IMG/VR virus record: IMGVR_UViG_3300024967_000007 | Location: 1 to 24,398 of that record | Reading direction: 5' to 3' (one strand) | DNA length: 24,398 nt | Source of the DNA: a virus | Shown here: piece after piece, positions 3,668 through 16,863 of the stretch | How the letters are laid out: each line of letters begins with the position of its first letter | Numbering within the stretch: the first letter of the stretch is position 1 | Translations under genes and position numbers: made by a program | The notes under the pieces: generated by a model | The model's input: the letters and a program-made list of their open reading frames with translations, nothing else | What the model was told of the DNA's origin: nothing | Database searches by the model: none

Positions 3668-4654
3668 ATGGCAAGTTATAGAAAGCTACCTAGTGGCAAT
3701 TGGTATGCTGAACTAAAAGTATTAAATCAGCGTGATGCAAAGGGAGGGTTCCTCACAAAAGGGCATGCTGTCGCCTGGGCTACTGAGCGTGAGGTTGAAA
3801 TTCGCGCAAATAAATCAACAGGCACGGCAGTAAAAAAATCACTTCATGATGCACTTGTTCAATACAGGCGAGACGTGACCCCAACCAAAAAAGGTAAGCG
3901 CTGGGAGGAGTTGCGTATCGATAAACTAATCAAAGAGCTTTCATTTGTTGGAAAGTTGATGGGTGACGTTAGTGTGACTGATATTGCTGATTGGCGTGAT
4001 ACCCGTCTTAAGCTGGTAAAAAGCAGTTCAGTTAATCGAGAGATGAATATCCTGTCTTCAGTTTTTACTATCGCTGTGCGAGAGTGGCGGTGGTGTGATC
4101 ATAATCCTGTGCGTGATGCGAAGCGACCAAAGAATCCCCAGCACCGGGACAGGCTTACTACACAAAATGAGCGACAATCAATGCTTGATGCGCTTGGATA
4201 TATTGATGGTGCTGCTCCTGTTACGGTTGGGCAGAAAGTTGCTTATGCCTATTTGATAGCTCTCGAAACGGCTATGCGTGCCGGTGAGATTTGTTCTATT
4301 AACAAAGACACTCTTTACCTTGGGCAGAAATTTGCCAGGCTGATTGATACAAAGAATGGTGAAAGTCGTGATGTGCCATTGTCCAGCCGGGCAATTGAAT
4401 TGTTTAAATTGGTACCGGATGGGGTAGGTATTACAACGGCTCAGATTGATGCCATGTGGCGGAAGGCTAGAGGAAATACTGAAGGTAAAGTAGTGGATCT
4501 GAAATTTCATGATTCACGCCACCAGGCAATTACTAATCTTGCTAAAAAATTAAATGTACTAGAATTGGCCAGAATGGTGGGGCACAAGAACCCTAAAACG
4601 TTGCTGATCTATTTTAATGATACGGCCACAACGATGGCTGATAAGTTGGGGTAG
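3668..4654 (+). CDS. int: Phage integrase, tyrosine recombinase
   Basis: 328 residues. The catalytic set is complete: Arg204 ('ETAMRAGEICS'), His281-x-x-Arg284 ('LKFHDSRHQAIT'), His306 ('MVGHKNPKT') and Tyr315 ('LLIYFND'). The N-terminal 'YRKLPSGNWYAELKV' resembles the arm-binding/AP2-like segment of phage integrases, followed by a SAM-like core-binding domain (about 55-150). It catalyses site-specific integration and, with an excisionase, excision. The ATG at 3668 follows a GGAAATGCC leader. It is transcribed towards the end of the opposing long operon (stop codons 4654 and 4657 nearly touch), so it is expressed separately, behind the paired 22-bp repeats. Confidence 0.95.
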   Translation: MASYRKLPSGNWYAELKVLNQRDAKGGFLTKGHAVAWATEREVEIRANKSTGTAVKKSLHDALVQYRRDVTPTKKGKRWEELRIDKLIKELSFVGKLMGDVSVTDIADWRDTRLKLVKSSSVNREMNILSSVFTIAVREWRWCDHNPVRDAKRPKNPQHRDRLTTQNERQSMLDALGYIDGAAPVTVGQKVAYAYLIALETAMRAGEICSINKDTLYLGQKFARLIDTKNGESRDVPLSSRAIELFKLVPDGVGITTAQIDAMWRKARGNTEGKVVDLKFHDSRHQAITNLAKKLNVLELARMVGHKNPKTLLIYFNDTATTMADKLG

Positions 4655-4911: not shown

Positions 4912-4913
4912 GA

Positions 4914-5187: not shown

Positions 5188-5397
5188 TTACTTAATCTCT
5201 ACAATATATTGATATACTCTACGCACAAATGATTTTACGTTGTAATACCATCTCTCGTAGAATTTTAATTTTCTAATATGAAATTCATTACTTGTACCAA
5301 AAGATAAAATCTTATAAGGCTTATAATTAATAAAAACTAGATCGCCGATTTCTAGGCCGTGATCTATGCTGTTTATTGTAAAAGTTTTAAATTCCAT
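5188..5397 (-). CDS. Hypothetical small basic phage protein
   Basis: 69 residues with an AAAGGA ribosome binding site about 6 nt before ATG 5397. The 'HGLEIGDLVFINYKPYKIL' stretch looks like a small beta-barrel (KOW/SH3-like turn), followed by an aromatic, basic helix ('KFYERWYYNVKSFVRRVYQY'). It is 9 nt downstream of the HTH gene in the operon. No family recognised; a nucleic-acid-binding role would be only a guess from its charge. Confidence 0.6.
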   Translation of the reverse strand: MEFKTFTINSIDHGLEIGDLVFINYKPYKILSFGTSNEFHIRKLKFYERWYYNVKSFVRRVYQYIVEIK

Positions 5398-5406
5398 AAC
5401 TATCCT

Positions 5407-5691
5407 TTAGGCCGCATGTTTTAATTTTCCGGTATTAATCCGCGCCCACTCAATTACATCAGTCGCAAACCACACCTTATGACCTTGTTTTGATTGTGTC
5501 GGACTGAATGGCGCGGGGAATGTTGGCATTTTGACAATGCGATCGCGCACCTCGGAATTTTTCAGCTTCAGCCAGTTGGCAATATCTTCTGTAGTCCAGA
5601 GTTCAGGCGCTTTGCTTACCTTAAGCGCACTAGCGCTTGCTTCCATCGCTTTGGCGATGCGCTCTAGGTTTTTAATTAAATCTTCGCTCAT
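5407..5691 (-). CDS. Excisionase/AlpA-like winged-helix DNA-binding protein
   Basis: 94 residues. The core 'ELWTTEDIANWLKLKNSEVR' followed by 'MPTFPAPF' and 'HKVWFATDVIEWARI' fits the MerR-like winged helix of AlpA/excisionase proteins (HTH_17): a helix-turn-helix, a proline/phenylalanine wing, then 'W-x-x-x-D-V-x-x-W'. An amphipathic helix precedes it. Its ATG overlaps the RT stop (ATGA), so it is coupled to the retroelement genes. Being the nearest regulator to the integrase, it is a candidate excisionase or integrase regulator. It could also act on the operon itself. Confidence 0.7.
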   Translation of the reverse strand: MSEDLIKNLERIAKAMEASASALKVSKAPELWTTEDIANWLKLKNSEVRDRIVKMPTFPAPFSPTQSKQGHKVWFATDVIEWARINTGKLKHAA

Positions 5692-6677
5692 TTTGTTGTA
5701 ACTCCTGTATGGCTTAGTGCTGCTCGATATGAATTCAATGCCTGGCTGCGGTCGTAAATGCCGGATTCATGCTGCCTTAATGTGTGGTGGTACCGGCTGC
5801 GCAGGTATGCGCCGGCTGATACGTGGTGCGGCCATGTTACGTAGCCTAAAAACGGTATTCCGCTGATCGTGGTTGCCAAGCGTATTTTCTTTGGGTGAAT
5901 GGTGATGCCTTCAGTGGCCAGTTGCTCAATGATTGTCTGGCAGATCTGCTGCAGGTATTCTTTGCTGTGGCCAAGGATTACCATGTCATCTACATAGCGC
6001 ACGTAATGCTTAACTTGCAGCGTTTCTTTCAGCCAGTGGTCAAAGTCGTTCAGGTAGATGTTGGCAAATAGTTGGCTGCTCAGGTTGCCAATTGGCATGC
6101 CTTTGTTTTGGTTGGTGCGGTACAGGCTATCGGCTGCAAATAAGTGATCGTAGTTGTCGCCGGTTCGATATGAGTCAATCAGGTCGATCAGAAGCTGGCG
6201 CACATCATGGTCACCAATGTGGCGCAATGCGCGTTCTTTAAGCTGTGCATGCGGTACCGAGTAGAAATACTTGCTGATGTCCAGCTGCAGCACCCATGAT
6301 GTGTTTTCGCGCCTGGCGAATTGTGCAACGCGGTCTATGGCTGCATGACTGCCGCGCCCTGGTAAATTGCCGAATGTGTCATGAATGAATTTTGGCTGCC
6401 AGATCGGCAGCATGTACTGGTACAGCATCCAATGAACGATGCGGTCTTTCATCGGTGCATCGACCACATCACGGAATTTCTTTTCACGAACGGTAAATGT
6501 TTTGTATTCGCCAAAGGCGTAAGTGCGTGCGCGGAGGCGTTGCTGAATGGTTGTCAGGTAGCTGAGCGCGTCTGCTTCAAAGCGCTGCATGCGTAAGCTG
6601 CTGCCTTTGTTGAGTTTGGCTTTGAGCCAGCATCTGTAGAGGTTTGGCATGCTGGTTATGTTCATGAAGTCACTCAT
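5688..6677 (-). CDS. DGR reverse transcriptase
   Basis: 329 residues. RT motifs run in order: 'VVDAPMKDRIVHWML' (about 71-85), 'GRGSHAAIDRV' (108-117), 'LQLDISKYFYSVPH' with catalytic Asp133, the DGR-type motif 4 'GMPIGNLSSQLFANIYLND' (193-211), catalytic 'YVDD' (228-231) and 'FLGYV' (276-280). The I-G-N-L-x-S-Q form of motif 4 separates DGR enzymes from retron and group II RTs. The enzyme makes cDNA from TR RNA with errors at adenines and delivers it to the VRs. The ATG overlaps the PP-loop gene stop, and the stop overlaps the HTH start. Length is normal for the family, and all catalytic aspartates are present. Confidence 0.96.
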   Translation of the reverse strand: MSDFMNITSMPNLYRCWLKAKLNKGSSLRMQRFEADALSYLTTIQQRLRARTYAFGEYKTFTVREKKFRDVVDAPMKDRIVHWMLYQYMLPIWQPKFIHDTFGNLPGRGSHAAIDRVAQFARRENTSWVLQLDISKYFYSVPHAQLKERALRHIGDHDVRQLLIDLIDSYRTGDNYDHLFAADSLYRTNQNKGMPIGNLSSQLFANIYLNDFDHWLKETLQVKHYVRYVDDMVILGHSKEYLQQICQTIIEQLATEGITIHPKKIRLATTISGIPFLGYVTWPHHVSAGAYLRSRYHHTLRQHESGIYDRSQALNSYRAALSHTGVTTK

Positions 6678-7708
6678 TCACATAAACCATAAGAAGATGA
6701 GCAACCGGAGTTTTTTTCTAGTTCATCAAAGAAATTTAATTGCTTTCCACCACGGGATGTTTTTGCCCAAAATATTACTTCATAAATATCTGCTACTTTG
6801 TTAGCGCCAGATTTATTGACTGCAAAGAAGGTTGGTTGCTGTCTTTTACTTGCTGCTGAAACAAGCAATTCCCATTCATGTATGCGGTCAATGTGTTCTG
6901 GGAAGCGTTTTGCGATCTGGTTTAATTCTGGTTTTGCTGCATTGATACACGGCATACATCCAACACGGCCCATGCCCTGTTTATATAGGGGGTTTGGCTT
7001 AATGTGCTTGTTTGAACAAAATGTGAAAACGTCATCTGCAGACCAATCCACAATAGGCCTGAAAATCCATAGGCGCTTGCCTACACGTTCAAATTTCTTT
7101 GATTTACTGCGGTTCAGTGATTCATCGCGCCTAATACCTTGCCAACTCAAAACGCTAAACCCTTGATCCATTAAATTCATTTGAAATTCAACTGCAATAT
7201 TTCGTTTTAATTCTTCGGTGCAAAATTGAGCTTTACGGCTTGGAAATCTACCTTTCCATAGACATAAATCTAAAAATGGATTTCCAGTAGGATGTAATGC
7301 ATTTAACGCACGGCGTTTTGCTTTATTTGACCATCTAATCCTGCGGCCAGAATCATCGCGTCGCGTGCGCATATCACGCGCAATAAACATACGTTTACGG
7401 GCAATCTGCTCACTAAACTCAGCTTTAAGACGTGTGATTTTTATATTAAGTGCTGATTCCAAATAATATAAATATTCATATACAGCCTCATGCTCATTGC
7501 CAGTGTCACAAAATATTGGAATGATTGATTCACGTGGGCAGTTATCAATCGCAATCAACAAAGTCGCAGCGGAATCTTTGCCACCACTTACTGAAATTAC
7601 ATGTTTTACTTTCCCGCTTTCCACAACAGCACCCGTAGGCGCTGCTGCGGTTTTCGGTTTGGCTTGTTGCCTTGCTTTTGCAGGTTTCTGCGGGATGCTC
7701 TCGACCAA
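6674..7708 (-). CDS. PP-loop ATPase, PAPS-reductase/DndC-like, between TR and RT
   Basis: 344 residues from TTG 7708, chosen because AAGGA lies 6 nt upstream. The frame stays open to an ATG at 8017, but that extension runs through the template repeat, giving a run of threonines, and into the avd gene. The PP-loop 'ISVSGGKDSAATLL' is at about 38-51. Cys163 ('QFCTEELK') and Cys251/Cys254 ('GCMPCINA') resemble thiol or Fe-S cysteines of this superfamily, and 'FRPIVDWSADDVF' is the typical C-terminal signature. Phage members are usually annotated as PAPS reductase, but the substrate is unknown (sulfur transfer, nucleotide or RNA modification). The stop overlaps the RT start (ATGA). Confidence 0.82.
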   Translation of the reverse strand: MVESIPQKPAKARQQAKPKTAAAPTGAVVESGKVKHVISVSGGKDSAATLLIAIDNCPRESIIPIFCDTGNEHEAVYEYLYYLESALNIKITRLKAEFSEQIARKRMFIARDMRTRRDDSGRRIRWSNKAKRRALNALHPTGNPFLDLCLWKGRFPSRKAQFCTEELKRNIAVEFQMNLMDQGFSVLSWQGIRRDESLNRSKSKKFERVGKRLWIFRPIVDWSADDVFTFCSNKHIKPNPLYKQGMGRVGCMPCINAAKPELNQIAKRFPEHIDRIHEWELLVSAASKRQQPTFFAVNKSGANKVADIYEVIFWAKTSRGGKQLNFFDELEKNSGCSSSYGLCE

Positions 7709-7761
7709 GATTGATCCTTCCGTGGCAGCATGGCCAGCGTCTAGGTGTTGTAATGTTGGGT

Positions 7762-7875
7762 CAGCGGAAGCCAACGTTGTTGTTGTCGTTGTCGGGCCAG
7801 TCGTTGTTGAGATTGAACACGCCGGCATTGTCGTCCGAGTTCCAGTAGCCGCCTCGGATGAGCGCATTGCCAGAC
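7762..7875 (-). repeat. DGR template repeat (TR)
   Basis: 114 bp homologous to VRs at 9207-9320, 12907-13020 and 13687-13800, with no indels. Read on the minus strand it is rich in AAC/AAT codons and would encode 'NSDDNAGVFNLNNDWPDNDN', then a stop directly after 'VGFR'. It contains 28 adenines, 26 of which differ in at least one VR. It begins 24 nt after the stop of the Avd-fusion gene and ends 53 nt before the proposed PP-loop start, so avd end, TR and spacer RNA are contiguous as in BPP-1-type DGRs. The 3' 15 bases (7762-7776) lack adenines on the sense strand and are identical in TR and all VRs. Confidence 0.97.
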
Positions 7876-7899
7876 TTTCCAGAGCGCACCCTGTATCGA

Positions 7900-8694
7900 T
7901 CATGATGTTGTCCTTTGTGCGCGTTGCAATCCGCCCAGGATGCGACCAAGCTCGACCACTAAACCCACTCGATGCTCGAATGAGATTTTGAATAGGTTTA
8001 GTGCTTGTGCCTGGCATATATAGTGGCGGATCAGATCCACGTCAGCAGATAGCTGTTTCAGCAGTTGCGGCTTGTTATCTTCATTGCCGTACAGATAGGT
8101 GTTGCGCATGATGCGCTGCATGGTCTGGCGCACGTTTTCGCCCCATGTAATACGGATGTCACGCGGTAGTTTGATCATGTCCTGCAGCAGCATTGAATCC
8201 AGATCGCCGGCTTTGGTTTTAAAGATGAAGTCCTGCGTATCCGGGTTGGCCAGTGCTTTTGCCGTGGTGGATGTTTTTAGCTGCTTGCTGGTGATCAGAT
8301 CCGCAATTACCTGGTTCACGATATCATCCGAGATTGCATCCAGTGCGTAGCTGGGCGCTGATACTTCGCATACATCGATGTCGGTTTGATTGACCACAAC
8401 ATAGGAAATATTGTGTTCATCCATGATTGGCCATAAGCGCTGTTTGTAATTGGCGACCGGAAAACCAACCAACAAGTGAGGCTTGTTAGCTGGGCCGGCA
8501 AGCCTGATTTTGTATTGCTTTAACGTGTGCAGCGCGTAGGCGGATTTGTTGAAAGCATGCAGCCAGGTTCCTGATTGCACCAATACCATGTGATGCGGGT
8601 ATTGGGCTTGCAGTTTTTCGCTGGTCTCTACGTGCGGATCAGTGGCGGTGAATGTGACTTCGATGCCTTGGATTAGATGATTAATTTGCATCAT
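7900..8694 (-). CDS. avd: MutS domain I-like/Avd fusion, DGR accessory protein
   Basis: 264 residues. The C-terminal part (about 170-260: 'IKLPRDIRITWGENVRQTMQ', 'LIRHYICQAQALNLF', 'ELGRILGGLQRAQ') has the pattern of Avd, the basic four-helix-bundle protein that binds DGR RT and TR RNA. The N-terminal part (about 25-110) resembles the MutS mismatch-recognition domain I: 'QYPHHMVLVQSGTWLHAFNK', then 'LLVGFPVANYKQRLWPIMDE' and 'ISYVVVNQ', parallel to MutS G-D-F-Y-E-L-F, G-V-P-x-H and V-A-I-C-E-Q. The Phe-x-Glu mismatch wedge is Trp44-x-His46 here. A linker of about 50 residues joins them. The start overlaps the previous stop (ATGA). The Avd call is firm; the MutS-I call is by eye. Confidence 0.8.
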   Translation of the reverse strand: MMQINHLIQGIEVTFTATDPHVETSEKLQAQYPHHMVLVQSGTWLHAFNKSAYALHTLKQYKIRLAGPANKPHLLVGFPVANYKQRLWPIMDEHNISYVVVNQTDIDVCEVSAPSYALDAISDDIVNQVIADLITSKQLKTSTTAKALANPDTQDFIFKTKAGDLDSMLLQDMIKLPRDIRITWGENVRQTMQRIMRNTYLYGNEDNKPQLLKQLSADVDLIRHYICQAQALNLFKISFEHRVGLVVELGRILGGLQRAQRTTS

Positions 8695-8927
8695 TGAACC
8701 TCGTGAGCCTTAACGTCTGGCATGCCTTGTTCCCAAAGTTCTAATAGGTTTTTAATCTCACCTACGGATTGCTCTCGATTAACATTGCTGATGTAACTTG
8801 CACGTTCATCCGTGAATACAATTAAAGTAAAACCGACTTTTCTATAGCAACAAGCTTCAATTTCCTCTTCTAAATTTTTAGCGATTTCTTGCAGGTGTTT
8901 GCTCAATCTGATTGCTTCCGCGCTCAT
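8691..8927 (-). CDS. Conserved hypothetical small phage protein
   Basis: 78 residues. The helical N-terminus ('LSKHLQEIAKNLEEEIEACC') leads to a beta hairpin ('GFTLIVFTDERASYISNVNR') and a C-terminal helix ('VGEIKNLLELWEQG'). The Y-I-S-N-x-x-R-E followed by L-L-E-x-W is a pattern I have seen in small phage and prophage proteins of unknown function. It overlaps both neighbours by ATGA, upstream of the MutS/Avd gene, so it is translated together with the DGR accessory gene. No catalytic motif is visible. Confidence 0.65.
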   Translation of the reverse strand: MSAEAIRLSKHLQEIAKNLEEEIEACCYRKVGFTLIVFTDERASYISNVNREQSVGEIKNLLELWEQGMPDVKAHEVQ

Positions 8928-9133
8928 ACCTTAGCCTTGCTTCTACGTTGAGATTTTTCAGCAGCTCTGCGCTCCGCACGATTGCCACCAAAGCCTCTTT
9001 GCAGATTGGAATTTTCATCTTCATTCAGCGTAACTTTTTGATGCTGCGCCTGTTGGTTTGGCTGCTCTCTTAGTTTTTCCATCATCTTGCTAAATGCGTC
9101 AGCGCCTTCAAACGCTCGGTTAATCATTTCCAT
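8924..9133 (-). CDS. Small basic hypothetical protein downstream of DGR target 1
   Basis: 69 residues with GGAG 6 nt upstream of ATG 9133. The N-terminal half is an amphipathic helix ('AFEGADAFSKMMEKLREQPN'). The C-terminal half is Gln/Asn-rich, then strongly basic ('GGNRAERRAAEKSQRRSKAK'), like a disordered nucleic-acid-binding tail. The R-A-E-R-R-A-A-E-K motif is frequent at the C-termini of small phage proteins. It begins 17 nt after the hairpin that follows the first VR gene and overlaps the next gene by ATGA. Function unknown. Confidence 0.6.
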   Translation of the reverse strand: MEMINRAFEGADAFSKMMEKLREQPNQQAQHQKVTLNEDENSNLQRGFGGNRAERRAAEKSQRRSKAKV

Positions 9134-9150
9134 TTTTAACTCCTATTAAA

Positions 9151-9175
9151 GCCGCCCGCCTTTCAAGCGGACGGC
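9151..9175. repeat. Hairpin downstream of VR1
   Basis: GCCG-C-CCGC pairs with GCGG-A-CGGC (8 bp plus one mismatch, 7-base loop). It ends 31 nt from the VR1 boundary. No T run follows on the minus strand, so it is not an obvious terminator. It is the positional counterpart of hairpins at 12838-12875 and 13629-13655 and of the hairpin/cruciform known to aid target recognition in BPP-1. Confidence 0.7.
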
Positions 9176-9190
9176 ATGAGTGACAAGTGA

Positions 9191-10129
9191 CTAGAGACTC
9201 TTGGTGCAGCGGAAGCCAACGTAGCTGCTGTCGTAGCCGGGCCAGTCGTTGCGGAGACGGAACACGCCGGCAACGACGCCCGAGTACCAGCAGCCGCCTC
9301 GGACGAGCGCAGAGCCAGACCAATCACCGCCGCCGATGCTGGTATCGCCTATGCCATGTTCGCGGCTTTCGTATGGCGCTGTGGTGACGGTAGGGGAGTC
9401 TTTGGCAAACTTCTTGGCAATCACGCCATTTTCATCGCCTTGTACGTCATCAAATACCCAGCTGTAAATATTGCCGCTGAAGTCATAAACGCGCTCACCG
9501 TTTGCCAGTACATGCCAGCGGCGCTCTGTTGGCTCATCGCTTTCATAATGGCCATCTTTCGGTTCTGATACGCTGCCTTTATGAATACCGCGATAGACTT
9601 CGCCTTCACCAGCCTTGCCGCCCGTCCAGTTTTCATCCTGGTTAACGATCTGATGTGCGATTGCCAGGTATTGCAGTTCCGTTATCAGTAAGTAGCCGGC
9701 ATCGATACATGCCTGCTTAGCTTTGTGAAAGGTGATGTAATTCCATGGCTTGCGATCTGCCGTGATGATGGCCGTGTCTATGTCTGACTTGCTGCAGGCG
9801 TACTTGCCAACATTAAATGCCGGTACCACTGTGCCGTTTGGCAATGTGGTTTTAGGCACTGTCACAAACTCATCCTTGCCTTGCAGTCTGTTACGGACGA
9901 TGGTGCGCAGATCTGCCGCCAGTAACGGATATTCGTTTTCGCATGATTTGGCATAAGCGCTGATCGCAGGAATGGCATGCTTGTCCGTACTCAGGTTAAG
10001 CACGTAATATTCATCATGTTCGTGCTTTTCGCCTGGTGCGCTTTGTCCATCGGTGCGGATAATATGGAATTTAGGGTAAAGGCCAATATTGCTTTTGTCT
10101 ATTTTAGTGTTGTCTGTAGCGGTGTTCAT
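9191..10129 (-). CDS. DGR target protein 1, FGE/C-type-lectin fold with extra N-terminal domain
   Basis: 312 residues with AGGAG before ATG 10129. The C-terminal ~230 residues are an FGE-sulfatase (SUMF1-like) C-type-lectin fold: 'ITELQYLAIAHQI', 'GNIYSWVFDD', 'RGGCW', 'VGFRC'. VR1 covers about residues 270-308. It lacks FGE active-site evidence and so is read as a binding scaffold. Unlike targets 2 and 3 it carries about 90 extra N-terminal residues ('HDEYYVLNLSTDKHAIPAIS', 'YPLLAADLR') resembling small stand-alone phage proteins. From about residue 150 on it is nearly identical to target 3, so one arose recently from the other. No signal peptide or membrane segment. The diversified face probably binds a ligand; which one is unknown. 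Confidence 0.92.
   Translation of the reverse strand: MNTATDNTKIDKSNIGLYPKFHIIRTDGQSAPGEKHEHDEYYVLNLSTDKHAIPAISAYAKSCENEYPLLAADLRTIVRNRLQGKDEFVTVPKTTLPNGTVVPAFNVGKYACSKSDIDTAIITADRKPWNYITFHKAKQACIDAGYLLITELQYLAIAHQIVNQDENWTGGKAGEGEVYRGIHKGSVSEPKDGHYESDEPTERRWHVLANGERVYDFSGNIYSWVFDDVQGDENGVIAKKFAKDSPTVTTAPYESREHGIGDTSIGGGDWSGSALVRGGCWYSGVVAGVFRLRNDWPGYDSSYVGFRCTKSL
9207..9320 (-). repeat. DGR variable repeat VR1
   Basis: 114 bp aligned to TR without gaps. 18 differences, all at positions where TR has adenine on the coding strand. Encodes the last diversified segment of target 1, ending 'SSYVGFR'. Its boundaries coincide exactly with those of the other VRs. Confidence 0.97.
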
Positions 10130-10156
10130 GGTTGCTCCTGTCCTTGGTTAAATGAA

Positions 10157-11119
10157 TTAAGCTGCTAGTTTTCTTGCTTGAACATGCGCCTTGAACTTTT
10201 CTGCCCACTGAGCGCACAGTGCATTTACTGCGTTTTCATCAAGTGTTGCTACATCTACGGTATAGCTATCACCAGATGCTATCGCATCATCCAGATCGGA
10301 TTTTTTAAGTCCTACCAGTTTTAACTGGTTTGGCATTTCTGGCAGTTGGATAGCAAACGTGATTGAGATCACTGGCTGTTGTGGTATTTGTTCCGGTACC
10401 GCATTTGTATTCATTTGTTTTTCTTTCTTTTCGGTTGGTGTTTTGGCTTTGTGATGCTGTTCCTGTGTTGGAATGTTGTTTGTCACGTGGCTCTGCGCAT
10501 TTAATTTGCGCTTCAGAAAGGCTTCATCCGTGTAGTAGTGCTTTGATTTTTCCAGCGTACCAACTTTAAAGTCATCGCATTTTGTAAAACCGCCATACTT
10601 GAGCACGTAGGTGATCATGTTGGCCGCCTTTGTAGTTTCATCATAATCGGTCGAGTTGTTGGTGATTTTGGCTATTAGCTCTTTATGCTCAATGCCTGGG
10701 TGCTCAGTAATAATGTCGCGGATCTGTTTTGCTACATTGGTATGTGCTGGCATATCGGCCTCTGCTTTAATGGTTGGTTTTTCAAACGTGTTGAAAGCAC
10801 GACCCTCTTTAAAAGTCATGGTGGTTGCTACTTTGTTGTTTTGTTTAATTACACTTTGTTTGATTGGCTTTAATTCCTCGGAGTTAGCTGGAGGTAGGTA
10901 GGCTGCTTTTTCAATATTTCGTCTTAATGGGCAAAAGCTACGGCCTAGCTCCGTAAGCTTGTAACCTGTTGCATCATTTTCTACATAACCAAGTTTTAAT
11001 AGCCTTGATGCTCTGATGCCACTTGGAAATCTATCCAAAAGCTCCGTATGGCTTATTGTTCCGGCTCTAAGTGCCTGCATTACCCTGGCTTCACATGTGC
11101 TTATTTTTGCTGCTTTCAT
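10157..11119 (-). CDS. Hypothetical phage protein with winged-helix-like segments
   Basis: 320 residues with CAGGAG about 8 nt upstream, overlapping the previous stop (ATGA). Residues 1-70 ('MKAAKISTCEARVMQALRAG', 'LDRFPSGIRASRLLKLGYVE') look like a winged helix, ending in 'TELGRSFCP'. A second one lies at about 128-190 ('IRDIITEHPGIEHKELIAKI'). A low-complexity linker (about 225-250) leads to a C-terminal domain ('ISITFAIQLPEMPNQLKLVG', 'ALCAQWAEKFKAH'). Two DNA-binding-like segments suggest a regulatory or replication-accessory role, but no family is recognised. Confidence 0.65.
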   Translation of the reverse strand: MKAAKISTCEARVMQALRAGTISHTELLDRFPSGIRASRLLKLGYVENDATGYKLTELGRSFCPLRRNIEKAAYLPPANSEELKPIKQSVIKQNNKVATTMTFKEGRAFNTFEKPTIKAEADMPAHTNVAKQIRDIITEHPGIEHKELIAKITNNSTDYDETTKAANMITYVLKYGGFTKCDDFKVGTLEKSKHYYTDEAFLKRKLNAQSHVTNNIPTQEQHHKAKTPTEKKEKQMNTNAVPEQIPQQPVISITFAIQLPEMPNQLKLVGLKKSDLDDAIASGDSYTVDVATLDENAVNALCAQWAEKFKAHVQARKLAA

Positions 11120-11595
11120 GCTGCTAACTCCTGGCCTCTTTCACTTTGTTCATAAAAGTCATCCACTACTTTTGAGCCGATAGCGTTGTACACTTTTGCA
11201 TCGGCCATCAGGTATAGTTTGCGCTGCACGTCCAGTACTTTCTCAGCATCCAAGACAGTTTGCATGTCCATTGTCTGCCCGATGCGTAGCTTGGTGAGCA
11301 GCTTGCGCATAGGTTGGTCGTTGTAGTCTGGAAGGTAGTGCGTTGCCAGTTCTGCAAAGAAATTAACCCACTCTGTTGCTACTTTCAGCAGGTAGCAGAT
11401 AGTGCCATCGGCTTTTTTGTAGACTAATACCCATTCGCCGCTTTTCAGGTCTTTGGCCTCAAGTGCCTCGCATGTTTTAAGCTGACGAAAAACGGCTTCA
11501 ATCTCTTCAAAGTCTTCTTTCATTGCAATTAGGCGAATGTTGCGTGTGCTGCCGCATGGCTTTGGTTTGTATTTTTTGCGAGGTTTACGACTCAT
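11116..11595 (-). CDS. Hypothetical phage protein
   Basis: 159 residues. The very basic start 'MSRKPRKKYKPKPCGSTRNI' is followed by a mostly helical body ('EEIEAVFRQLKTCEALEAKD', 'LLTKLRIGQTMDMQTVLDAE', 'QRKLYLMADAKVYNAIGSKV'). The K-Y-K-P-K-P-like opening is familiar from small proteins in early operons of betaproteobacterial phages, but no function is known to me. It overlaps both neighbours by ATGA. No membrane segment, no catalytic motif. Confidence 0.65.
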   Translation of the reverse strand: MSRKPRKKYKPKPCGSTRNIRLIAMKEDFEEIEAVFRQLKTCEALEAKDLKSGEWVLVYKKADGTICYLLKVATEWVNFFAELATHYLPDYNDQPMRKLLTKLRIGQTMDMQTVLDAEKVLDVQRKLYLMADAKVYNAIGSKVVDDFYEQSERGQELAA

Positions 11596-11960
11596 GCGCG
11601 GCCTTCTTTCTTAAGGTCAGCAACAACCTGAGCCATTGTTCTGGCTTGTGGTACCGGGTTGTATGAAAGGTCTGTGCTTAGTACGTCTTCAATTTCAGCA
11701 TCTATTGATTTGTGCCTTATCAACTTTTTATGTGAATACATGCTGGCAGTGATTGCAAACGGGCCCGCAATTAAATAGGCGGCAATGTCCAGCGTGTCTG
11801 CCTGTGGTACGGTTTTGAATAGCACCAAGTTAGCCAAGCCAATAGCAAAGCTGGTAAAAAACGCAGCCTTGTAGTGTCCGTTATTCACGTTTAGGCTTTG
11901 AAAACCTAGTGCGAATACCAAGGTAAATGTGCTGGCAAAAATGAGTAGGGCGGTGATCAT
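11592..11960 (-). CDS. Hypothetical membrane protein, early operon
   Basis: 122 residues with three hydrophobic segments: about 2-20 ('ITALLIFASTFTLVFALGF'), 31-49 ('KAAFFTSFAIGLANLVLF') and 58-74 ('DIAAYLIAGPFAITASM'). A cytoplasmic-looking polar tail follows ('RTMAQVVADLKKEG'). It overlaps both neighbours (ATGA). Small membrane proteins in leftward early operons often act on superinfection or host membrane functions, but nothing specific is visible here. Confidence 0.65.
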   Translation of the reverse strand: MITALLIFASTFTLVFALGFQSLNVNNGHYKAAFFTSFAIGLANLVLFKTVPQADTLDIAAYLIAGPFAITASMYSHKKLIRHKSIDAEIEDVLSTDLSYNPVPQARTMAQVVADLKKEGRA

Positions 11961-12151
11961 GCTGCAACCATTTCAGAACCGTCGTCTTCCGCATAATGTT
12001 TGGTTGCGTGCTCACCCATCATTTTTATGATTAAATTATGGCAAGCGCCTATGTTTTCAGTGGTTGGCGGCACCTTTCCCGTGTCTCGGTTACAGATAAG
12101 GTCTGCAAGTGCTGCTAGGTCGGAAAGCGAAACGGTAACATGTGTAGTCAT
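11957..12151 (-). CDS. Hypothetical small phage protein
   Basis: 64 residues, overlapping both neighbours by ATGA. 'VSLSDLAALADLICNRDTGK' and 'ACHNLIIKMMGEHATKH' suggest two helices; the tail is acidic. No domain recognised. It is supported mainly by tight coupling within the operon and normal codon use. Confidence 0.55.
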   Translation of the reverse strand: MTTHVTVSLSDLAALADLICNRDTGKVPPTTENIGACHNLIIKMMGEHATKHYAEDDGSEMVAA

Positions 12152-12531
12152 GCTGCAGCCTTTGAATTAATGGCAATTAGTTCAAGTTCTGCTTGTTTAA
12201 TGAATTCGATATGCTGGGTTAGTATATCGATCATCACCTGAGCATCTATTGCCGATAGGTACTCTTGAATTCTTGCTGAGCCGGTTTCAATGACGAAAAC
12301 CGAATACACTTTATCCTCAACTCTTTTTGTTGTGTAATCTTTAATCCATACAGAAGTTCTCACTGTTGAATTCTTTAAGAGAATTTCTGATGTATTAAAT
12401 TTTTCTGGATTAAAACTCATAGTGTCCACCCCGCTAAATCCCATGCTGTTTTTAAGTTGTAGCCACGATTTTTGTAATAATGGCGTGTTAATTTGATGCG
12501 TTTTAATAGTTTGATCATTTAAAATCTCCAA
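12148..12531 (-). CDS. Hypothetical phage protein
   Basis: 127 residues with GGAG-type sequence overlapping the end of the small membrane gene (12515-12634). Predominantly beta in the middle ('SEILLKNSTVRTSVWIKDYT', 'KVYSVFVIETGS') and helical at the end ('AQVMIDILTQHIEFIKQAEL'). No recognised family. It is somewhat A/T-richer than its neighbours. It overlaps the next gene by ATGA, so it belongs to the same transcript as the DGR. Confidence 0.6.
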   Translation of the reverse strand: MEILNDQTIKTHQINTPLLQKSWLQLKNSMGFSGVDTMSFNPEKFNTSEILLKNSTVRTSVWIKDYTTKRVEDKVYSVFVIETGSARIQEYLSAIDAQVMIDILTQHIEFIKQAELELIAINSKAAA

Positions 12532-12634
12532 TGCTCAGTGGGTCACATAGGGCATAGGTGATGCTTACAATGCAAAGCATTGCTACAGCGACACGCAGCG
12601 CGTCATAGATAAAGTCGTTTGTATGGATGCTCAT
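12515..12634 (-). CDS. Very small membrane protein (39 aa)
   Basis: The ATG at 12632-12634 lies 2 nt after the TAA of the upstream gene and the frame ends at TGA 12515-12517, overlapping the next gene start by 17 nt. The peptide starts 'MSIHTNDFIYDALR' and has one membrane helix 'VAVAMLCIVSITYALC', then 'DPLSIGDFK'. Start-stop proximity and the hydrophobic helix support a real gene that fills an otherwise empty gap. Function unknown. Confidence 0.55.
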   Translation of the reverse strand: MSIHTNDFIYDALRVAVAMLCIVSITYALCDPLSIGDFK

Positions 12635-12636
12635 GA

Positions 12637-12819
12637 TTAAGCAGCCTCCGGACTTGTACACATCTGCATGCGGCGAATCTCAGCCGCTTCTTTGATGTTC
12701 ACAACTTTGCGCGGCTTTGGATCAGGGTGATGCACCACGCGCAAACCAAGTGATTTGGCTTCATTAATAAGGGTTTGTACGGTGCGAATATCGGTGTTTT
12801 CTGCAATTTGAAGATTCAT
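12637..12819 (-). CDS. Hypothetical small phage protein
   Basis: 60 residues with GGAGAG upstream of ATG 12819. 'TVQTLINEAKSLGLRVVHHP' then a basic loop 'DPKPRKVVNIKEAAEIRRM' could form a small alpha/beta unit. It lies 18 nt beyond the hairpin that follows VR2, so it is the first gene after target 2. No domain recognised. Confidence 0.55.
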   Translation of the reverse strand: MNLQIAENTDIRTVQTLINEAKSLGLRVVHHPDPKPRKVVNIKEAAEIRRMQMCTSPEAA

Positions 12820-12837
12820 TTTTACTCTCCGGTTAAA

Positions 12838-12875
12838 CCAGTCCGCGGTGACAAAAATCAGTCACATCGGACTGG
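12838..12875. repeat. Hairpin downstream of VR2
   Basis: Outer arms CCAGTCCG (12838-12845) and CGGACTGG (12868-12875) are perfect. Inside, GTGAC pairs with GTCAC around an 8-base loop. Exactly 31 nt separate it from the VR2 boundary, as for VR1 and VR3. Not followed by a T run on the minus strand. Confidence 0.75.
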
Positions 12876-12890
12876 ATGGGTGACAAGTGA

Positions 12891-13610
12891 CTAGAGACTC
12901 TTGGTGCAGCGGAAGCCAACGTAGCTGAGGTCGCCGATGGGCCAGTCGTCGTTGAGACGGAACACGCCGGCATAGGCGTCCGAGTCCCAGCAGCCGCCTC
13001 GGATGAGCGCACGGCCAGACCAATTACGACCGCTATCTGGTCGCCACCCCATGCCTTTTTCAAGGCTAGGGTAGGGTGCTGTTGAAATTGAAGGGTCTTT
13101 TGTGTCGAATGGCTTATTGATAACGCCTTTTTCATCACCATGGATATCGTCAAATACCCATGAAAAGACATTGCCATTCATATCGCAGATTTTTTCGCCA
13201 TTGCTCAGGGTGAGCCAGCGGCGCTCTTTTTTGTCGGCAGGATCAAAGTCACCGGCTTGCGCTTCTGTTACGTTACCTTTACGGATGCCACGGAATAGCT
13301 TGCCTTCACCGACCTTGCCTTTAGTCCAGTTGGCGTCCACGTTCACCACGTTATGCGCGATGGCCAGCCATTGTGTTTCTGTGATCAGTGAGTAGCCGGC
13401 ATCCAGGCATGCTTGTTTTGCGTTTTTGAAGTTTATGCTTGTCCAGGTCTTACCGTCAGCTGTAATAACCGCTTTTCCGTCACCTGACTTGCTGGCTGCG
13501 TACTGACCAACCTGGAATGATGGCACTAGGGTCCCGTTAGGTAGTTCTGTCTCCGGAACGGTGACAAATAGGTCTAGTAGTGCTGCTTTGTGTTCGGTTT
13601 GCATGTTCAT
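12891..13610 (-). CDS. DGR target protein 2, FGE/C-type-lectin fold
   Basis: 239 residues, with AAAGG 7 nt before ATG 13610. Single FGE-sulfatase/C-type-lectin domain: 'ITETQWLAIAHNV', 'GNVFSWVFDD', 'RGGCW', 'VGFRC'. VR2 covers about residues 197-235, followed by the constant tail 'CTKSL'. The N-terminus ('EHKAALLDLFVTVPETELPN') is nearly identical to target 3, while the middle differs from both other targets, so the three are mosaics. No signal peptide or membrane segment is visible. The variable face probably determines binding specificity; the ligand cannot be read from the sequence. Confidence 0.92.
   Translation of the reverse strand: MNMQTEHKAALLDLFVTVPETELPNGTLVPSFQVGQYAASKSGDGKAVITADGKTWTSINFKNAKQACLDAGYSLITETQWLAIAHNVVNVDANWTKGKVGEGKLFRGIRKGNVTEAQAGDFDPADKKERRWLTLSNGEKICDMNGNVFSWVFDDIHGDEKGVINKPFDTKDPSISTAPYPSLEKGMGWRPDSGRNWSGRALIRGGCWDSDAYAGVFRLNDDWPIGDLSYVGFRCTKSL
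12907..13020 (-). repeat. DGR variable repeat VR2
   Basis: 114 bp, gap-free against TR. 17 differences, 16 at TR adenines and one (12938) at a TR guanine on the coding strand, which together with a neighbouring adenine change turns Asp into Ile. The only non-adenine change among the three VRs. Confidence 0.97.
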
Positions 13611-13628
13611 AATGAACCTTTCATTAAA

Positions 13629-13655
13629 CCAGCCCGCCGTTGCACATCGGACTGG
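13629..13655. repeat. Hairpin downstream of VR3
   Basis: CCAG-C-CCG (13629-13636) pairs with CGG-A-CTGG (13648-13655) with one mismatch and an 11-base loop. Spacing to the VR3 boundary is exactly 31 nt. The right arm is the same as at VR2, but the left arm and loop differ. Confidence 0.7.
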
Positions 13656-13670
13656 ATGGGTGACAAGTGA

Positions 13671-14384
13671 CTAGAGACTCTTGGTGCAGCGGAAGCCAAC
13701 GCTGCCGCCGTCGCCGTCGGGCCAGCCGATGCCGAGACGGAACACGCCGGCATAGCCGTCCGAGACCCAGCAGCCGCCTCGGAGGAGCGCATTGCCAGAC
13801 CAATCACCGCCGCCGATGCTGGTATCGCCTATGCCGTGTTCACGGCTTTCGTATGGCGCTGTGGTGACAGTAGGGGAGTCTTTGGCAAACTTCTTGGCAA
13901 TCACGCCATTTTTATCGCCTTGTACGTCATCAAACACCCAGCTGTAGATGTTGCCGCTAAAGTCGTACACACGTTCGCCATTGGATAGCACATGCCAGCG
14001 GCGTTCTGTTGGCTCTTCGCTTTCATAATGACCGTCTTGCGCTTCTGATACTTTCCATTTGTGAATACCGCGGTAGATTTCACCTTCGCCTACTTTATTG
14101 CCTGTCCAGTTTTCAGCCTGTTGGCTGATCTGGTAGGCAATAGCTAGGTATTGCAGCTCGGTAATGAGTGCATAGCCAGCCCCAGCGCATTCAGCGCGTG
14201 CGTCATGGTAGTTAATGTTGCGCCAAGGTTTGTTGGCCTGGTCAATAACAAGCGTACCGTCATTGTTTTTACTGCAATGGTATGCGCCTACCTGAAACGA
14301 TGGCACTACGGTGCCATTGGGCAGTTCTGTCTCCGGAACGGTGACAAATAGGTCTAGTAGTGCTGCTTTGTGTTCTGTTTGCAT
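13671..14384 (-). CDS. DGR target protein 3, FGE/C-type-lectin fold
   Basis: 237 residues, AAGG about 8 nt before ATG 14384. Same fold as the other targets ('ITELQYLAIAYQI', 'GNIYSWVFDD', 'RGGCW', 'VGFRC'); VR3 covers about residues 195-233. The first ~30 residues match target 2 nearly exactly, while the part from about residue 80 to the VR matches target 1 almost base for base. It is therefore a recombinant or the common parent. First target gene after the operon promoter, 10 nt beyond a small gene. No export signal visible. Confidence 0.92.
   Translation of the reverse strand: MQTEHKAALLDLFVTVPETELPNGTVVPSFQVGAYHCSKNNDGTLVIDQANKPWRNINYHDARAECAGAGYALITELQYLAIAYQISQQAENWTGNKVGEGEIYRGIHKWKVSEAQDGHYESEEPTERRWHVLSNGERVYDFSGNIYSWVFDDVQGDKNGVIAKKFAKDSPTVTTAPYESREHGIGDTSIGGGDWSGNALLRGGCWVSDGYAGVFRLGIGWPDGDGGSVGFRCTKSL
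13687..13800 (-). repeat. DGR variable repeat VR3
   Basis: 114 bp, gap-free against TR; 19 differences, all at TR adenines of the coding strand (A to G most often, also A to T and A to C). Most diverged of the three VRs. Confidence 0.97.
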
Positions 14385-14394
14385 GGCATCAACC

Positions 14395-14577
14395 TTAAAT
14401 ATTGTTGTACCAGTAGTTTTTTGCTACTGGGGCTGGTCTACGCTTTGCGTAGTTGTTTGCCAGCCGGTTTAAACAAATCGCAAGGCCTTTATTAGCCAAT
14501 GCGCTTTCAAGCGTGTAACCAAAACTGGCTAGTTTTGCTCTGTTGAATGCTCGCTGCAGATCAGTTTGTGTGTGCAT
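14395..14577 (-). CDS. Hypothetical small protein, first gene of the DGR operon
   Basis: 60 residues; GGGAG lies about 9 nt before ATG 14577. The sequence 'LQRAFNRAKLASFGYTLESA' followed by 'LANKGLAICLNRLANNYAKR' is helical and basic, a form often seen for the first small gene of a phage leftward operon. It is about 45 nt downstream of the proposed -10 element. No domain recognised; a regulatory role (for example antitermination) would be guesswork. Confidence 0.6.
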   Translation of the reverse strand: MHTQTDLQRAFNRAKLASFGYTLESALANKGLAICLNRLANNYAKRRPAPVAKNYWYNNI

Positions 14578-14619
14578 TTTTCAAAACTCCCTAACTTGGT
14601 TTAGGTGGCGCTTTGAAAT

Positions 14620-14649
14620 ATACTAAACGTAATGTTTAGTAACTGTCAA
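14620..14649 (-). promoter_or_regulatory. Leftward early promoter (PL-like) of the DGR operon
   Basis: On the minus strand a perfect -35 TTGACA (14644-14649), an 18-bp spacer and a -10 TAGTAT (14620-14625). The same -10 is used at the cro promoter. A dyad operator sits inside the spacer/-10 and a second overlaps the -35, so repressor binding would block transcription. Strong candidate, untested. Confidence 0.75.
14621..14641. promoter_or_regulatory. Repressor operator OL1-like
   Basis: Perfect dyad TACTAAAC-N5-GTTTAGTA, identical in both arms to the operator at 16896-16916. It overlaps the -10 and spacer of the DGR operon promoter. Confidence 0.82.
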
Positions 14650-14662
14650 ACAAAATGTTTAG
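14646..14662. promoter_or_regulatory. Repressor operator OL2-like (weaker)
   Basis: TCAAAC-AAAAT-GTTTAG, one arm perfect and one with a T to C change against CTAAAC. Overlaps the -35 TTGACA. Its centre is 23 bp from the first operator. The spacer AAAAT is the same as in the weaker operator at 16864-16880. Confidence 0.7.
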
Positions 14663-14715
14663 TTTTGTGATGATATTTTTTTGAGCAAAGATAATTTTGT
14701 GAGAAATAGGCGAAA

Positions 14716-14739
14716 AAAAACCGCCGAATGGCGGTTTTT
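14716..14739. terminator. Bidirectional rho-independent terminator
   Basis: AAAAACCGCC (14716-14725), loop GAAT, GGCGGTTTTT (14730-14739): a perfect 10-bp stem with T runs on both strands. It lies 19 nt beyond the minus-strand stop at 14759, ending the repressor operon and isolating it from the DGR promoter. Confidence 0.92.
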
Positions 14740-14758
14740 GCTGGTAATGAGGGAATAG

Positions 14759-15745
14759 TTAATTCGGCTGTGTTCTTACTGAAATAATTGTTGCTGTGGT
14801 TATATTGCCTCTTAGCTCGTTTGCATTAACGCTGAGATAAACTTTGTTTTTTGGTCTGGACCATTCAGCAGCTTGTAATTCTGCAATCTGTCTTTTATCG
14901 AGTGAGTTGTCTTTAAACTTAGCTACGAATTCTCGATTTGAATCCAGGTGAAGCAATCTAATTTTTATTTCATCTGGCTGGGTCGTATTGACTTGTAACA
15001 CATGATAGTTACCATTGACTTGTATTTCTGCTGATTCTGCTCTGGCGTTAGATGAAAGGCGTTTTGCATCTTCTTTATTAAAGCTAATGCCATTTATTTC
15101 TATGGTTTCTGCATCGGATATCCCTTTTAGCATAGAAATATTGGTTTGCTTTGCGTCTTTTTTTATACTTTCTAATGCCGGCCTGTCACGCATCGCATCT
15201 GCAAATATCTGCATTCTGGCAGTTTCCTGCTCGGAGAGTTTTATTCTTTCAATAGTTGCTTGTTCGAGAGCTTTTCCAGCTGCAGCTGATTCAACATATG
15301 TTTTATAAGCAACAGTAGATGCCCATGTAACGGCCGCGCCAAGAATTAATATAGTTAGTTCTTTGCCTGTCATCTTGTTGGTAATCTTATCAATTAATGC
15401 CCCAAAAGACTTTTCCAAGTCCACAGTGATGTGAGTGCATCCGTCTTCAACCTTTGCTTTAAACTCGAGTGCCTTGCGCTCATCGTCACTAAGGTGCCTA
15501 GTGTTTTTATCTAAAGCTAGTTTAGCATAAGTACGATTAAGGCCTTGCTGTAATTCTAACAAGGCGGACATGATTGATGGTGTTAATGTGCTGTTGTATC
15601 CCTCGCCTTCAAGCTCAATGGTGATCTTTGGCCAATTATCAAATTTGATTTTTATATCATCAGGGATTTCATCGCGTAGCGCCTTTTGAAGAAACTCAAA
15701 CGCATCTGCTTCGCTAGTTATTTTTAATTCTTGTTGGTTATCCAA
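14759..15745 (-). CDS. Membrane-anchored protein of unknown function, candidate moron
   Basis: 328 residues. A soluble N-terminal domain (1-125, 'FEFLQKALRDEIPDDIKIKF', 'ITIELEGEGYNSTLTPSIMS') precedes one probable membrane helix at about 128-148 ('KELTILILGAAVTWASTVAY'). A helical region and a beta-rich C-terminus follow ('IEINGISFNKEDAKRLSSNA', 'VYLSVNANELRG'). Not a structural or replication family I know. It lies in the repressor operon, ends just before a terminator and is A/T-rich, so it is probably expressed in the lysogen. Superinfection exclusion or phage defence is a reasonable hypothesis, no more. Confidence 0.6.
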   Translation of the reverse strand: MDNQQELKITSEADAFEFLQKALRDEIPDDIKIKFDNWPKITIELEGEGYNSTLTPSIMSALLELQQGLNRTYAKLALDKNTRHLSDDERKALEFKAKVEDGCTHITVDLEKSFGALIDKITNKMTGKELTILILGAAVTWASTVAYKTYVESAAAGKALEQATIERIKLSEQETARMQIFADAMRDRPALESIKKDAKQTNISMLKGISDAETIEINGISFNKEDAKRLSSNARAESAEIQVNGNYHVLQVNTTQPDEIKIRLLHLDSNREFVAKFKDNSLDKRQIAELQAAEWSRPKNKVYLSVNANELRGNITTATIISVRTQPN

Positions 15746-15790
15746 AAGTGGTCCTTGAGTTTAAGACAATGTTTAATAGGCTATTTGTAT

Positions 15791-16204
15791 TTATAGAGAA
15801 CATTTTCTGTAGTCATCTAGCGCCCATTTTTTTAGTAATTTTGAGTGACCTTCCGCGGATCCAACTGAGTAAAATGCCGTTACCTTAGACTTGTTGTCAC
15901 CAATTTCCTTAATATCGATTACCTGGTAATAACTGGTACCGAGCCCGCCTCGTAGTGATACTGCAATAGTTCCTATTTTATTGTCCGGGTCTAAATTTCC
16001 CTCGGTGACCATTTGTGCGGTTACCATCCACCCGTCGCTGCATTGCTGGGTTTGTTCTAATAATTTCTTGTATAAGTGCTGGTAATTTTCTGGGGCATCA
16101 AAGGAGGCTGACTTTGATGGGGCCAACTCTCGAACACCGCCAATTGTATGTGGGGTGCATGCGGTAATTAGCAGCGGGATCAGTGCAATGTGGAATATTT
16201 TCAT
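15791..16204 (-). CDS. Small lipoprotein, repressor operon
   Basis: 137 residues. The lipoprotein signal peptide 'MKIFHIALIPLLITACTPHT' has a clear lipobox (L-I-T-A-C, Cys16). The mature part is a compact alpha/beta domain ('YQHLYKKLLEQTQQCSDGWM', 'IAVSLRGGLGTSYYQVIDIK') with two further cysteines near its start and end. Gram-negative lipoproteins of this size occur in prophages and as host genes. In a lysogenic operon such proteins often alter receptors or exclude other phages (compare Cor-like lipoproteins), but there is no direct evidence for that here. Confidence 0.7.
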   Translation of the reverse strand: MKIFHIALIPLLITACTPHTIGGVRELAPSKSASFDAPENYQHLYKKLLEQTQQCSDGWMVTAQMVTEGNLDPDNKIGTIAVSLRGGLGTSYYQVIDIKEIGDNKSKVTAFYSVGSAEGHSKLLKKWALDDYRKCSL

Positions 16205-16209
16205 TTTTT

Positions 16210-16389
16210 TTAATTATTTTGTTCTAGTAGCTGTTTTAGCAGTTTGTTAGTTTCTTTGGATTCTTTAATTTGTTGCTCAATTAAATCTTTTGTCCCAAAT
16301 ATTGCAAATGGTAAAAAGAACCATAGCAGTGCCAATACAATTAAAAATATTACTATAAGCAACCCCAGCCCCGTATCTACACCTGACAT
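16210..16389 (-). CDS. Small single-span membrane protein with coiled-coil tail
   Basis: 59 residues from ATG 16389, chosen for the AGGGGG site about 6 nt upstream; an upstream start would add eight residues. One long hydrophobic helix ('GLLIVIFLIVLALLWFFLPF') precedes a charged helix ('DLIEQQIKESKETNKLLKQL'). It lies 5 nt before the lipoprotein gene and downstream of the repressor, in the same operon. Function unknown; candidate exclusion factor together with its neighbours. Confidence 0.6.
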   Translation of the reverse strand: MSGVDTGLGLLIVIFLIVLALLWFFLPFAIFGTKDLIEQQIKESKETNKLLKQLLEQNN

Positions 16390-16451
16390 TTGTTCCCCCT
16401 GATTAAAAATCAAAATTTCGTTGTATTTGTAGCCGATAAATATTATTTAAC

Positions 16452-16847
16452 TTATGTTCCGGTTGCTTTGGGTGGGTTATGGCCGTTTGGTTTTGGCTCT
16501 GGTTCAGCAAGCGAATCGCTGATTTTTACAACCTGATATTTTGTTGCCTCATCCATATGTTGCATAGCTAAAACAACTTGTGCCTCAGGTGAGTTTTTAT
16601 ATGGGCGTAGTGGATCAAACATTTCACCAGTTCCGTCTCTGACATATTTAATTCTAAAGCTCCATTCATCTGCCAGATCGATTAAATAGTCTTTGGGTAC
16701 CCCTCTGACTTTCCAGTTTCTAATATGCTGGTCTAAAAGATTAAATTTTCTAGCCAATTCAGCATCTGACATCTCTATTTTAAGAGTTGTCATTACTTTT
16801 CTTAATCTTGTATAGCTTTCATGTTCCATTTCAGCAATGTAATTCAT
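16452..16847 (-). CDS. CI-like repressor without peptidase domain
   Basis: 131 residues from ATG 16847, chosen because AAAGGAC lies just upstream. The HTH is in 'KIEMSDAELARKFNLLDQHI' followed by 'RNWKVRGVPKDYLIDLADEW', the pattern of phage CI repressor N-terminal domains. The remainder (about 75-131) is short and has no Ser-Lys S24 peptidase residues, so RecA-stimulated self-cleavage is unlikely and induction may use another route (for example an antirepressor). It faces cro across operators 16864-16880 and 16893-16919 and probably also binds the leftward operators at 14621-14662. Confidence 0.72.
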   Translation of the reverse strand: MNYIAEMEHESYTRLRKVMTTLKIEMSDAELARKFNLLDQHIRNWKVRGVPKDYLIDLADEWSFRIKYVRDGTGEMFDPLRPYKNSPEAQVVLAMQHMDEATKYQVVKISDSLAEPEPKPNGHNPPKATGT

Positions 16848-16863
16848 GGACTGTCCTTTTGTG

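What the first reader, a model, noticed from the sequence alone, without database searches (positions are those of the whole stretch)
7762..13800. A complete diversity-generating retroelement with one template and three variable repeats
TR (7762-7875) aligns without gaps over 114 bp to VR1 (9207-9320), VR2 (12907-13020) and VR3 (13687-13800). By hand count there are 18, 17 and 19 differences, and 53 of 54 lie at TR adenines. 26 of 28 TR adenines differ in at least one VR. All four copies begin and end at the same base, with an adenine-free shared 3' end of 15 bases. A canonical DGR RT and an Avd-like protein accompany it. Three targets served by one TR is well above the usual one.
Basis: partly seen in the sequence, partly recalled or inferred. 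Interest (0 to 1): 0.92.

Follow-up and report, generated by a model that had tools for sequence, protein, structure and literature searches.

The report
Retroelement template inside its polymerase's gene
A temperate bacterial virus carries a working-looking cassette that rewrites three of its own genes by error-prone copying of a template; in this virus family that template also appears to be translated as the front end of the copying enzyme's gene, or of an exchangeable passenger gene slipped in front of it.

Summary
It is a diversity-generating retroelement (DGR) with three paralogous FGE/C-lectin-type targets. In a near-identical phage, two targets have 0 differences in 300 bp upstream and 60 bp downstream but 20 and 18 inside the VR, so it has diversified recently. 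Multiple targets are common (28.6% of DGRs in one survey).

What is less ordinary was not reported. In 46 relatives a conserved ATG at the avd stop opens a frame that runs through TR and its structured spacer with no stop (0/2293 spacer codons), then in phase into the RT, or into a cargo gene with the RT restarting at its own ATG. Half of the cargo-free RTs (17/35) have no other usual start codon. The cargo slot swaps rapidly: PAPS reductase here, DNA methyltransferases in sister phages. Only 3/62 other upstream-TR DGRs share the open frame. The Avd is a MutS-domain-I-Avd fusion. Overlap of TR with an annotated RT ORF was catalogued in 2012, so I call this a new variant of a known kind. Translation is inferred, not measured.

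The parts
7762..7875 (-). Template repeat (TR), 114 bp
   Evidence: 83-85% identical to three VRs, differences at adenines
9207..9320 (-). VR1, 3' end of target T1
   Evidence: 18 differences, all at TR adenines
12907..13020 (-). VR2, 3' end of target T2
   Evidence: 17 differences, 16 at TR adenines
13687..13800 (-). VR3, 3' end of target T3
   Evidence: 19 differences, all at TR adenines
9191..10129 (-). Target T1, 312 aa, extra N-terminal region plus FGE-sulfatase-like domain ending in the VR
   Evidence: FGE-sulfatase 9e-5 (just below cut-off), phrog_9572 2e-38
12891..13610 (-). Target T2, 239 aa, FGE-sulfatase-like
   Evidence: phrog_2889 9e-33
13671..14384 (-). Target T3, 237 aa, FGE-sulfatase-like
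   Evidence: Pfam FGE-sulfatase 7e-8; formylglycine-generating enzyme 6s07 E 0.01
9151..9175 (-). Hairpin-forming inverted repeat downstream of VR1 (GAAA-type loop)
   Evidence: same place as the BPP-1 target hairpin of PMC3240598
12838..12875 (-). Hairpin-forming inverted repeat downstream of VR2
13629..13655 (-). Hairpin-forming inverted repeat downstream of VR3
7900..8694 (-). Avd with an N-terminal MutS domain I, 264 aa
   Evidence: NF033474 2e-8 (below its cut-off), bAvd in 15/15 relatives; model matches MutS (1ewq, 1nne) and Avd (4dwl, 8ub7)
7901..7903 (-). Start codon of the leader ORF, overlapping the avd stop as ATGA, with AAAGGA upstream
   Evidence: ATG present in 46/46 relatives, SD-like motif in 42/46
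7613..7775 (-). TR 3' end plus spacer RNA: structured, covarying, and in the leader reading frame
   Evidence: 32 pairs, 98.3% paired, 16 pairs with compensatory change; CM hit 155 bits
6674..7903 (-). Leader-cargo ORF: about 95 aa encoded by TR and spacer, in frame with a PAPS-reductase-family protein (cargo from about 7627)
   Evidence: PAPS_reduct 4e-24, phrog_424 3e-66; stop overlaps the RT start as ATGA
5688..6677 (-). DGR reverse transcriptase, 329 aa (DISKYF 133, GMPIGNLSSQ 193, YVDD 228)
3668..4654 (+). Phage integrase (context: the DGR and targets lie between integrase and regulator, not in the tail module)
   Evidence: phrog_1 3e-44

Best explanation
A temperate-phage DGR that works by mutagenic retrohoming: the RT with its MutS-I-Avd partner copies the TR RNA, misincorporates opposite adenines, and the cDNA replaces the VR of any of three FGE/C-lectin-type target genes, each followed by a hairpin. 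The twist is that TR and its spacer are not a separate non-coding RNA but the 5' coding part of the next cistron. Ribosomes start at an ATG overlapping the avd stop and read through TR and spacer. In most relatives they read straight into the RT, which is therefore made with an unstructured tail of about 100 residues. In this phage and other cargo carriers the leader continues in frame into an inserted gene (here a PAPS-reductase-family enzyme) and the RT restarts at an ATG overlapping the cargo stop. Shown by sequence: TR/VR adenine pattern, recent VR divergence, conserved leader start and frame, covarying spacer RNA, cargo exchange. Inferred: that retrohoming is active now, that the leader is translated, and that the tail or the translation/templating conflict has a function.
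For: Adenine specificity. Window v L006: target T2 0/300 differences upstream, 20 in VR (19 at TR A), 0/60 downstream; T3 0/300, 18 (17), 0/60; TR itself 2. Leader ATG in 46/46 relatives with an SD-like motif in 42. No leader-frame stop in 2293 spacer codons v 47 and 11 in the other two frames. Six different spacer lengths, all in phase with RT in 35/35 cargo-free loci. 17/35 RTs have no ATG/GTG/TTG after TR and 27/35 no ATG. Cargo in the leader frame in 9 loci (the 8 plus L012), RT restarting at an overlapping or touching stop/start in the 8. In three loci whose cargo is in another frame with its own start, the leader frame is still open to RT; P 0.016, 0.0036, 0.0044 given the cargo protein. 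Outside the clade only 3/62 TR-upstream DGRs have the RT frame open through TR. Loci not used to find the rule obey it: L014, L029, L038 (leader-RT) and L195 (leader-D12 methyltransferase). Spacer covariation 0/500 shuffles as high. Fold: leader residues 1-97 disordered, RT well folded from about 100.
Against: No expression, ribosome or protein data. Amino-acid constraint on the leader is weak (pooled pN/pS 0.69, null 0.83, 6/300), so what is conserved is openness rather than a peptide sequence. Relatives are not independent, and one other frame is also fairly open (11/46 loci with a stop). BPP-1, whose RT has its own ATG, also happens to be open through TR. In the window the cargo could instead start at GTG 7625-7627.
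Confidence: 0.78

Rival explanations
1. Ordinary DGR with a non-coding template: the open frame is a by-product of spacer composition and RNA structure, and the RT starts at a non-standard codon near its core.
For: Weak amino-acid constraint; BPP-1 is open by apparent chance; strong RNA constraint.
Against: Six spacer lengths all in phase; off-frame cargo loci keep the leader frame open; 3/62 in other DGRs; conserved ATG with SD-like motif.
Confidence: 0.13
2. The leader is translated only to couple translation of avd with the next gene; the peptide and the overlap with TR have no further role, and the fusion may be clipped. (A rival about function, compatible with the translated-leader reading.)
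For: Leader predicted disordered; weakly constrained peptide.
Against: Coupling would work with a stop/restart as at the cargo-RT junction, yet no cargo-free locus uses one.
Confidence: 0.4
3. The PAPS-reductase cargo is an unrelated hitch-hiking gene that starts at its own GTG (7625-7627) and has nothing to do with the leader.
For: GTG at +151 follows GGGTG in the window, L006 and L035; standalone relatives start at about the same place.
Against: Cargo in phase with the leader in 9/9 such loci (chance about 5e-5 if phases were free), and L025 has no usual start codon at all between TR and cargo.
Confidence: 0.35
4. The DGR is a fossil: VR differences spread by recombination among phages, not by current homing.
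For: Decayed relatives exist (L049, L050).
Against: VRs differ at TR adenines between phages identical on both flanks; RT motifs intact; TR nearly frozen.
Confidence: 0.06

Closest known systems
BPP-1 DGR of Bordetella phage (mtd, avd, TR, brt)
   Same: Gene order target-avd-TR-RT, adenine mutagenesis, IMH/IMH* difference, spacer RNA of similar length, hairpin after VR (PMC3240598, PMC12875486, L104)
   Different: Single tail-protein target, single-domain Avd, RT with its own ATG and no cargo; the spacer model R1 finds nothing in BPP-1
Multi-VR DGRs (DiGReF table 2, PMC3521204; 28.6% of DGRs in PMC6642488)
   Same: One TR, several paralogous targets, each with adenine-only changes
   Different: Not different in kind; three is on the high side
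[quoted passage not shown]
   Same: Possibly the same arrangement as the cargo-free relatives, seen through gene annotation (its member list could not be checked)
   Different: There treated as architecture, with RT- and TR-RNA thought to be separately transcribed; here frame, start codon and cargo behaviour argue for one translated cistron
MSL (MutS-like) DGR accessory protein (mentioned in PMC10053308)
   Same: MutS domain I in a DGR
   Different: Here fused to the N terminus of Avd in one protein in all 15 relatives aligned; I could not read the paper that defined MSL, so whether this fusion is already described is open

Membership tests
Diversity-generating retroelement | TR/VR pair with substitutions confined to TR adenines | tested here: met
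   53/54
Diversity-generating retroelement | RT of the DGR clade | tested here: met
   Best PDB match BPP-1 bRT 162 bits, next 80 bits; motifs at 133, 193, 228. No full RT-superfamily tree was built
Diversity-generating retroelement | Avd or other accessory protein | tested here: met
   (sequence scores below the curated cut-offs; fold match clear)
Diversity-generating retroelement | VR at the 3' end of a C-lectin/FGE-type target with IMH different from IMH* | tested here: met
Diversity-generating retroelement | Mutagenic retrohoming in living cells | not testable with these tools
   Only the population trace was seen
BPP-1-type target hairpin | 7-10 bp GC-rich stem with GRNA loop 4-34 bp after VR (PMC3240598) | tested here: inconclusive
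   Stems after all three VRs, GAAA loop after VR1 only
MutS domain I | Fold and sequence of the mismatch-recognition domain | tested here: met
   Foldseek prob 1.00 to MutS (E about 1e-3), rmsd 2.4-5 A over about 100 residues; Pfam 8e-5 in the best relative, weak in the window. Mismatch binding untested
Non-coding DGR template RNA | TR and spacer outside any gene | tested here: not met
   for this clade, by reading-frame evidence only

The most novel reading that the evidence does not exclude
Template RNA and RT mRNA are one molecule whose translation and reverse transcription exclude each other, giving a self-limiting switch, and the slot between template and RT is a docking site for exchangeable DNA-modification enzymes that are made with the same leader as the RT.
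Probability: 0.25. Interest if true: 0.8.

Novelty: new variant of a known kind. Interest (0 to 1): 0.6.

Why it matters
How DGR template RNA is made, protected from ribosomes and handed to the RT is not settled. A clade in which the template must be translated to make the RT makes cis-coupling directly testable by recoding. The cargo slot, exchanged between near-identical phages and often filled with DNA methyltransferases or PAPS-reductase-family enzymes, also suggests that DGRs can act as carriers for other genes.

Tried and rejected
No close DNA or protein relative of TR or MutS-Avd among isolated phages. Rfam has no model for the spacer. A first guess that the PAPS reductase is a conserved DGR accessory was dropped: nearest relatives carry other genes in that slot. 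A guess that the RT always lacks a start was narrowed: loci whose cargo is in the leader frame have an RT with its own ATG. BPP-1 was checked as a possible second case; its frame is open but it has its own start and no ATG at the avd end, so it is not counted. Two motif hits (L075, L084) have no avd or RT beside them and look like chance. Genome searches for more cellular members found few.

Full report
Observation. The DGR lies on the minus strand. The window is an IMG/VR virus record of 24.4 kb; its closest relative found in a cellular genome is in Methylotenera oryzisoli (L035). A fixed mismatch just past the 3' end (TR GACCC, VR GCACC) is shared by most relatives and is the expected IMH*/IMH difference.

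Machinery. RT 5688-6677 is closest among solved structures to BPP-1 bRT. The gene at 7900-8694 combines an N-terminal MutS domain I with a C-terminal Avd: Pfam and NCBIfam give weak Avd hits, all 15 relatives match bAvd, and the AlphaFold model (mean pLDDT 73) gives matches to MutS of about 100 residues and to Avd and the DGR ribonucleoprotein of about 110 residues. By eye, the MutS Phe-x-Glu position seems to read FLH/WLH here, so classical mismatch reading by the glutamate is unlikely; this is inference. The targets are FGE-sulfatase-like, each with a hairpin-forming repeat starting about 30 nt after VR.

Activity. Between the window and L006, targets T2 and T3 are identical for 300 bp upstream and 60 bp downstream of the VR but differ at 20 and 18 VR positions, 36 of 38 at TR adenines, while TR differs at two. 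That is the trace of recent mutagenic homing at two of the three VRs; T1 is also diverged (19 of 21 at TR adenines) but its flanks differ too. Whether homing occurs today is not shown.

A template inside a gene. Reading the region between avd and RT in relatives showed an ORF that starts at an ATG overlapping the avd stop, crosses TR in a frame different from the VR frame, crosses the spacer, and joins the next gene in frame. A TR-specific pattern brought in 54 stretches, giving, with earlier loci, 46 that hold both avd and RT. All 46 have the ATG; the leader frame has no stop in 2293 spacer codons while the other two frames have 47 and 11. In 35 cargo-free loci the spacer has six lengths, all keeping RT in phase; 17 of these RTs have no ATG, GTG or TTG after TR, 27 no ATG. 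Cargo in the leader frame is found in nine loci (the eight plus L012); in the eight the cargo stop overlaps or touches a new RT ATG. Three loci (L011, L013, L060) carry small cargo in another frame with their own start, and there the leader frame is still open through the cargo to an RT without a start codon at its usual position, which random synonymous coding of those cargos gives in only 1.6%, 0.4% and 0.4% of trials. Among 62 other DGRs with TR upstream of RT only three have the RT frame open through TR. Loci outside the discovery set follow the rule (L014, L029, L038), including a genome (L195) where the leader joins a protein very like the D12-class methyltransferase of L006.

RNA. The spacer is also a structured RNA: 32 pairs, 98.3% of cells paired, 16 pairs with compensatory changes, no shuffle reaching the covariation score and slid controls at 31-57%. 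Its last hairpin ends just before the point where cargo is inserted, so insertion spares the RNA. A covariance model finds it in clade members not used for training (L054, L062, L012) but not in BPP-1 or the other outgroup loci searched. RNA pairing therefore seems to dominate nucleotide constraint, and coding selection on the peptide is weak (pN/pS 0.69 v 0.83 under shuffling, 6/300). The leader is predicted disordered and the RT fold begins near residue 100. My reading is that translation through the template is conserved, not the peptide.

Cargo. Within three close RTs (about 94% identical) the slot holds a PAPS reductase, a D12 methyltransferase and a small ORF; a related PAPS reductase (88% identical) appears in L012, whose RT lies in another subclade. 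Other cargos are an N6/N4 methyltransferase (L035), a Dam-type methyltransferase (L082), a second PAPS reductase (L025), an H-NS-C-terminal-like protein (L036) and unknowns. Standalone PAPS reductases in other phages have a methionine about where the fusion begins (Parlo, S1).

Known or new. DGRs, multiple VRs and MSL accessories are known (PMC3521204, PMC6642488, PMC10053308). DiGReF already listed TRs overlapping annotated RT ORFs as group 3 but concluded that TR and RT RNAs are probably separate. I found no paper in the held library that treats the template as translated, but the large NAR classification survey of DGRs is not held, so prior description cannot be excluded. Hence new variant of a known kind.

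Limits. All evidence is comparative. Relatives are not independent. In the window itself the cargo could start at GTG 7625-7627, so for this phage the leader-cargo fusion is likely rather than proven.

Noticed in passing
window 4657-16871: The DGR and all three targets sit on the minus strand between integrase and a regulator-like gene, away from the tail genes, so the diversified proteins may not be tail fibres.
   Followed up: partly
L049:1000-1150, L050:8690-8804: Two relatives have avd cut at the same residue (about 254) and joined to similar foreign DNA; L049 keeps only an RT remnant: decayed DGRs with what looks like a shared breakpoint.
   Followed up: no
window 9191-10129 and relatives: Many complete loci have one long target (T1 type, extra N-terminal region, usually next to avd) plus one or more short ones; the roles may differ.
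   Followed up: no
window 8691-8927 and 8924-9133: Two small overlapping ORFs between T1 and avd without clear family matches; the overlapping stop/start codons suggest translational coupling with avd.
   Followed up: no
window 14759-15745: 328-aa protein of phrog_6191 (function unknown), 100% identical in L005 although nearby VRs differ.
   Followed up: no
L012:86-263: L012 carries a 15-nt in-frame insertion in the spacer.
   Followed up: no
L104 (BPP-1): In BPP-1 the RT frame is also open through TR, in the same frame relative to the VR reading frame; may be chance in a GC-rich genome.
   Followed up: partly
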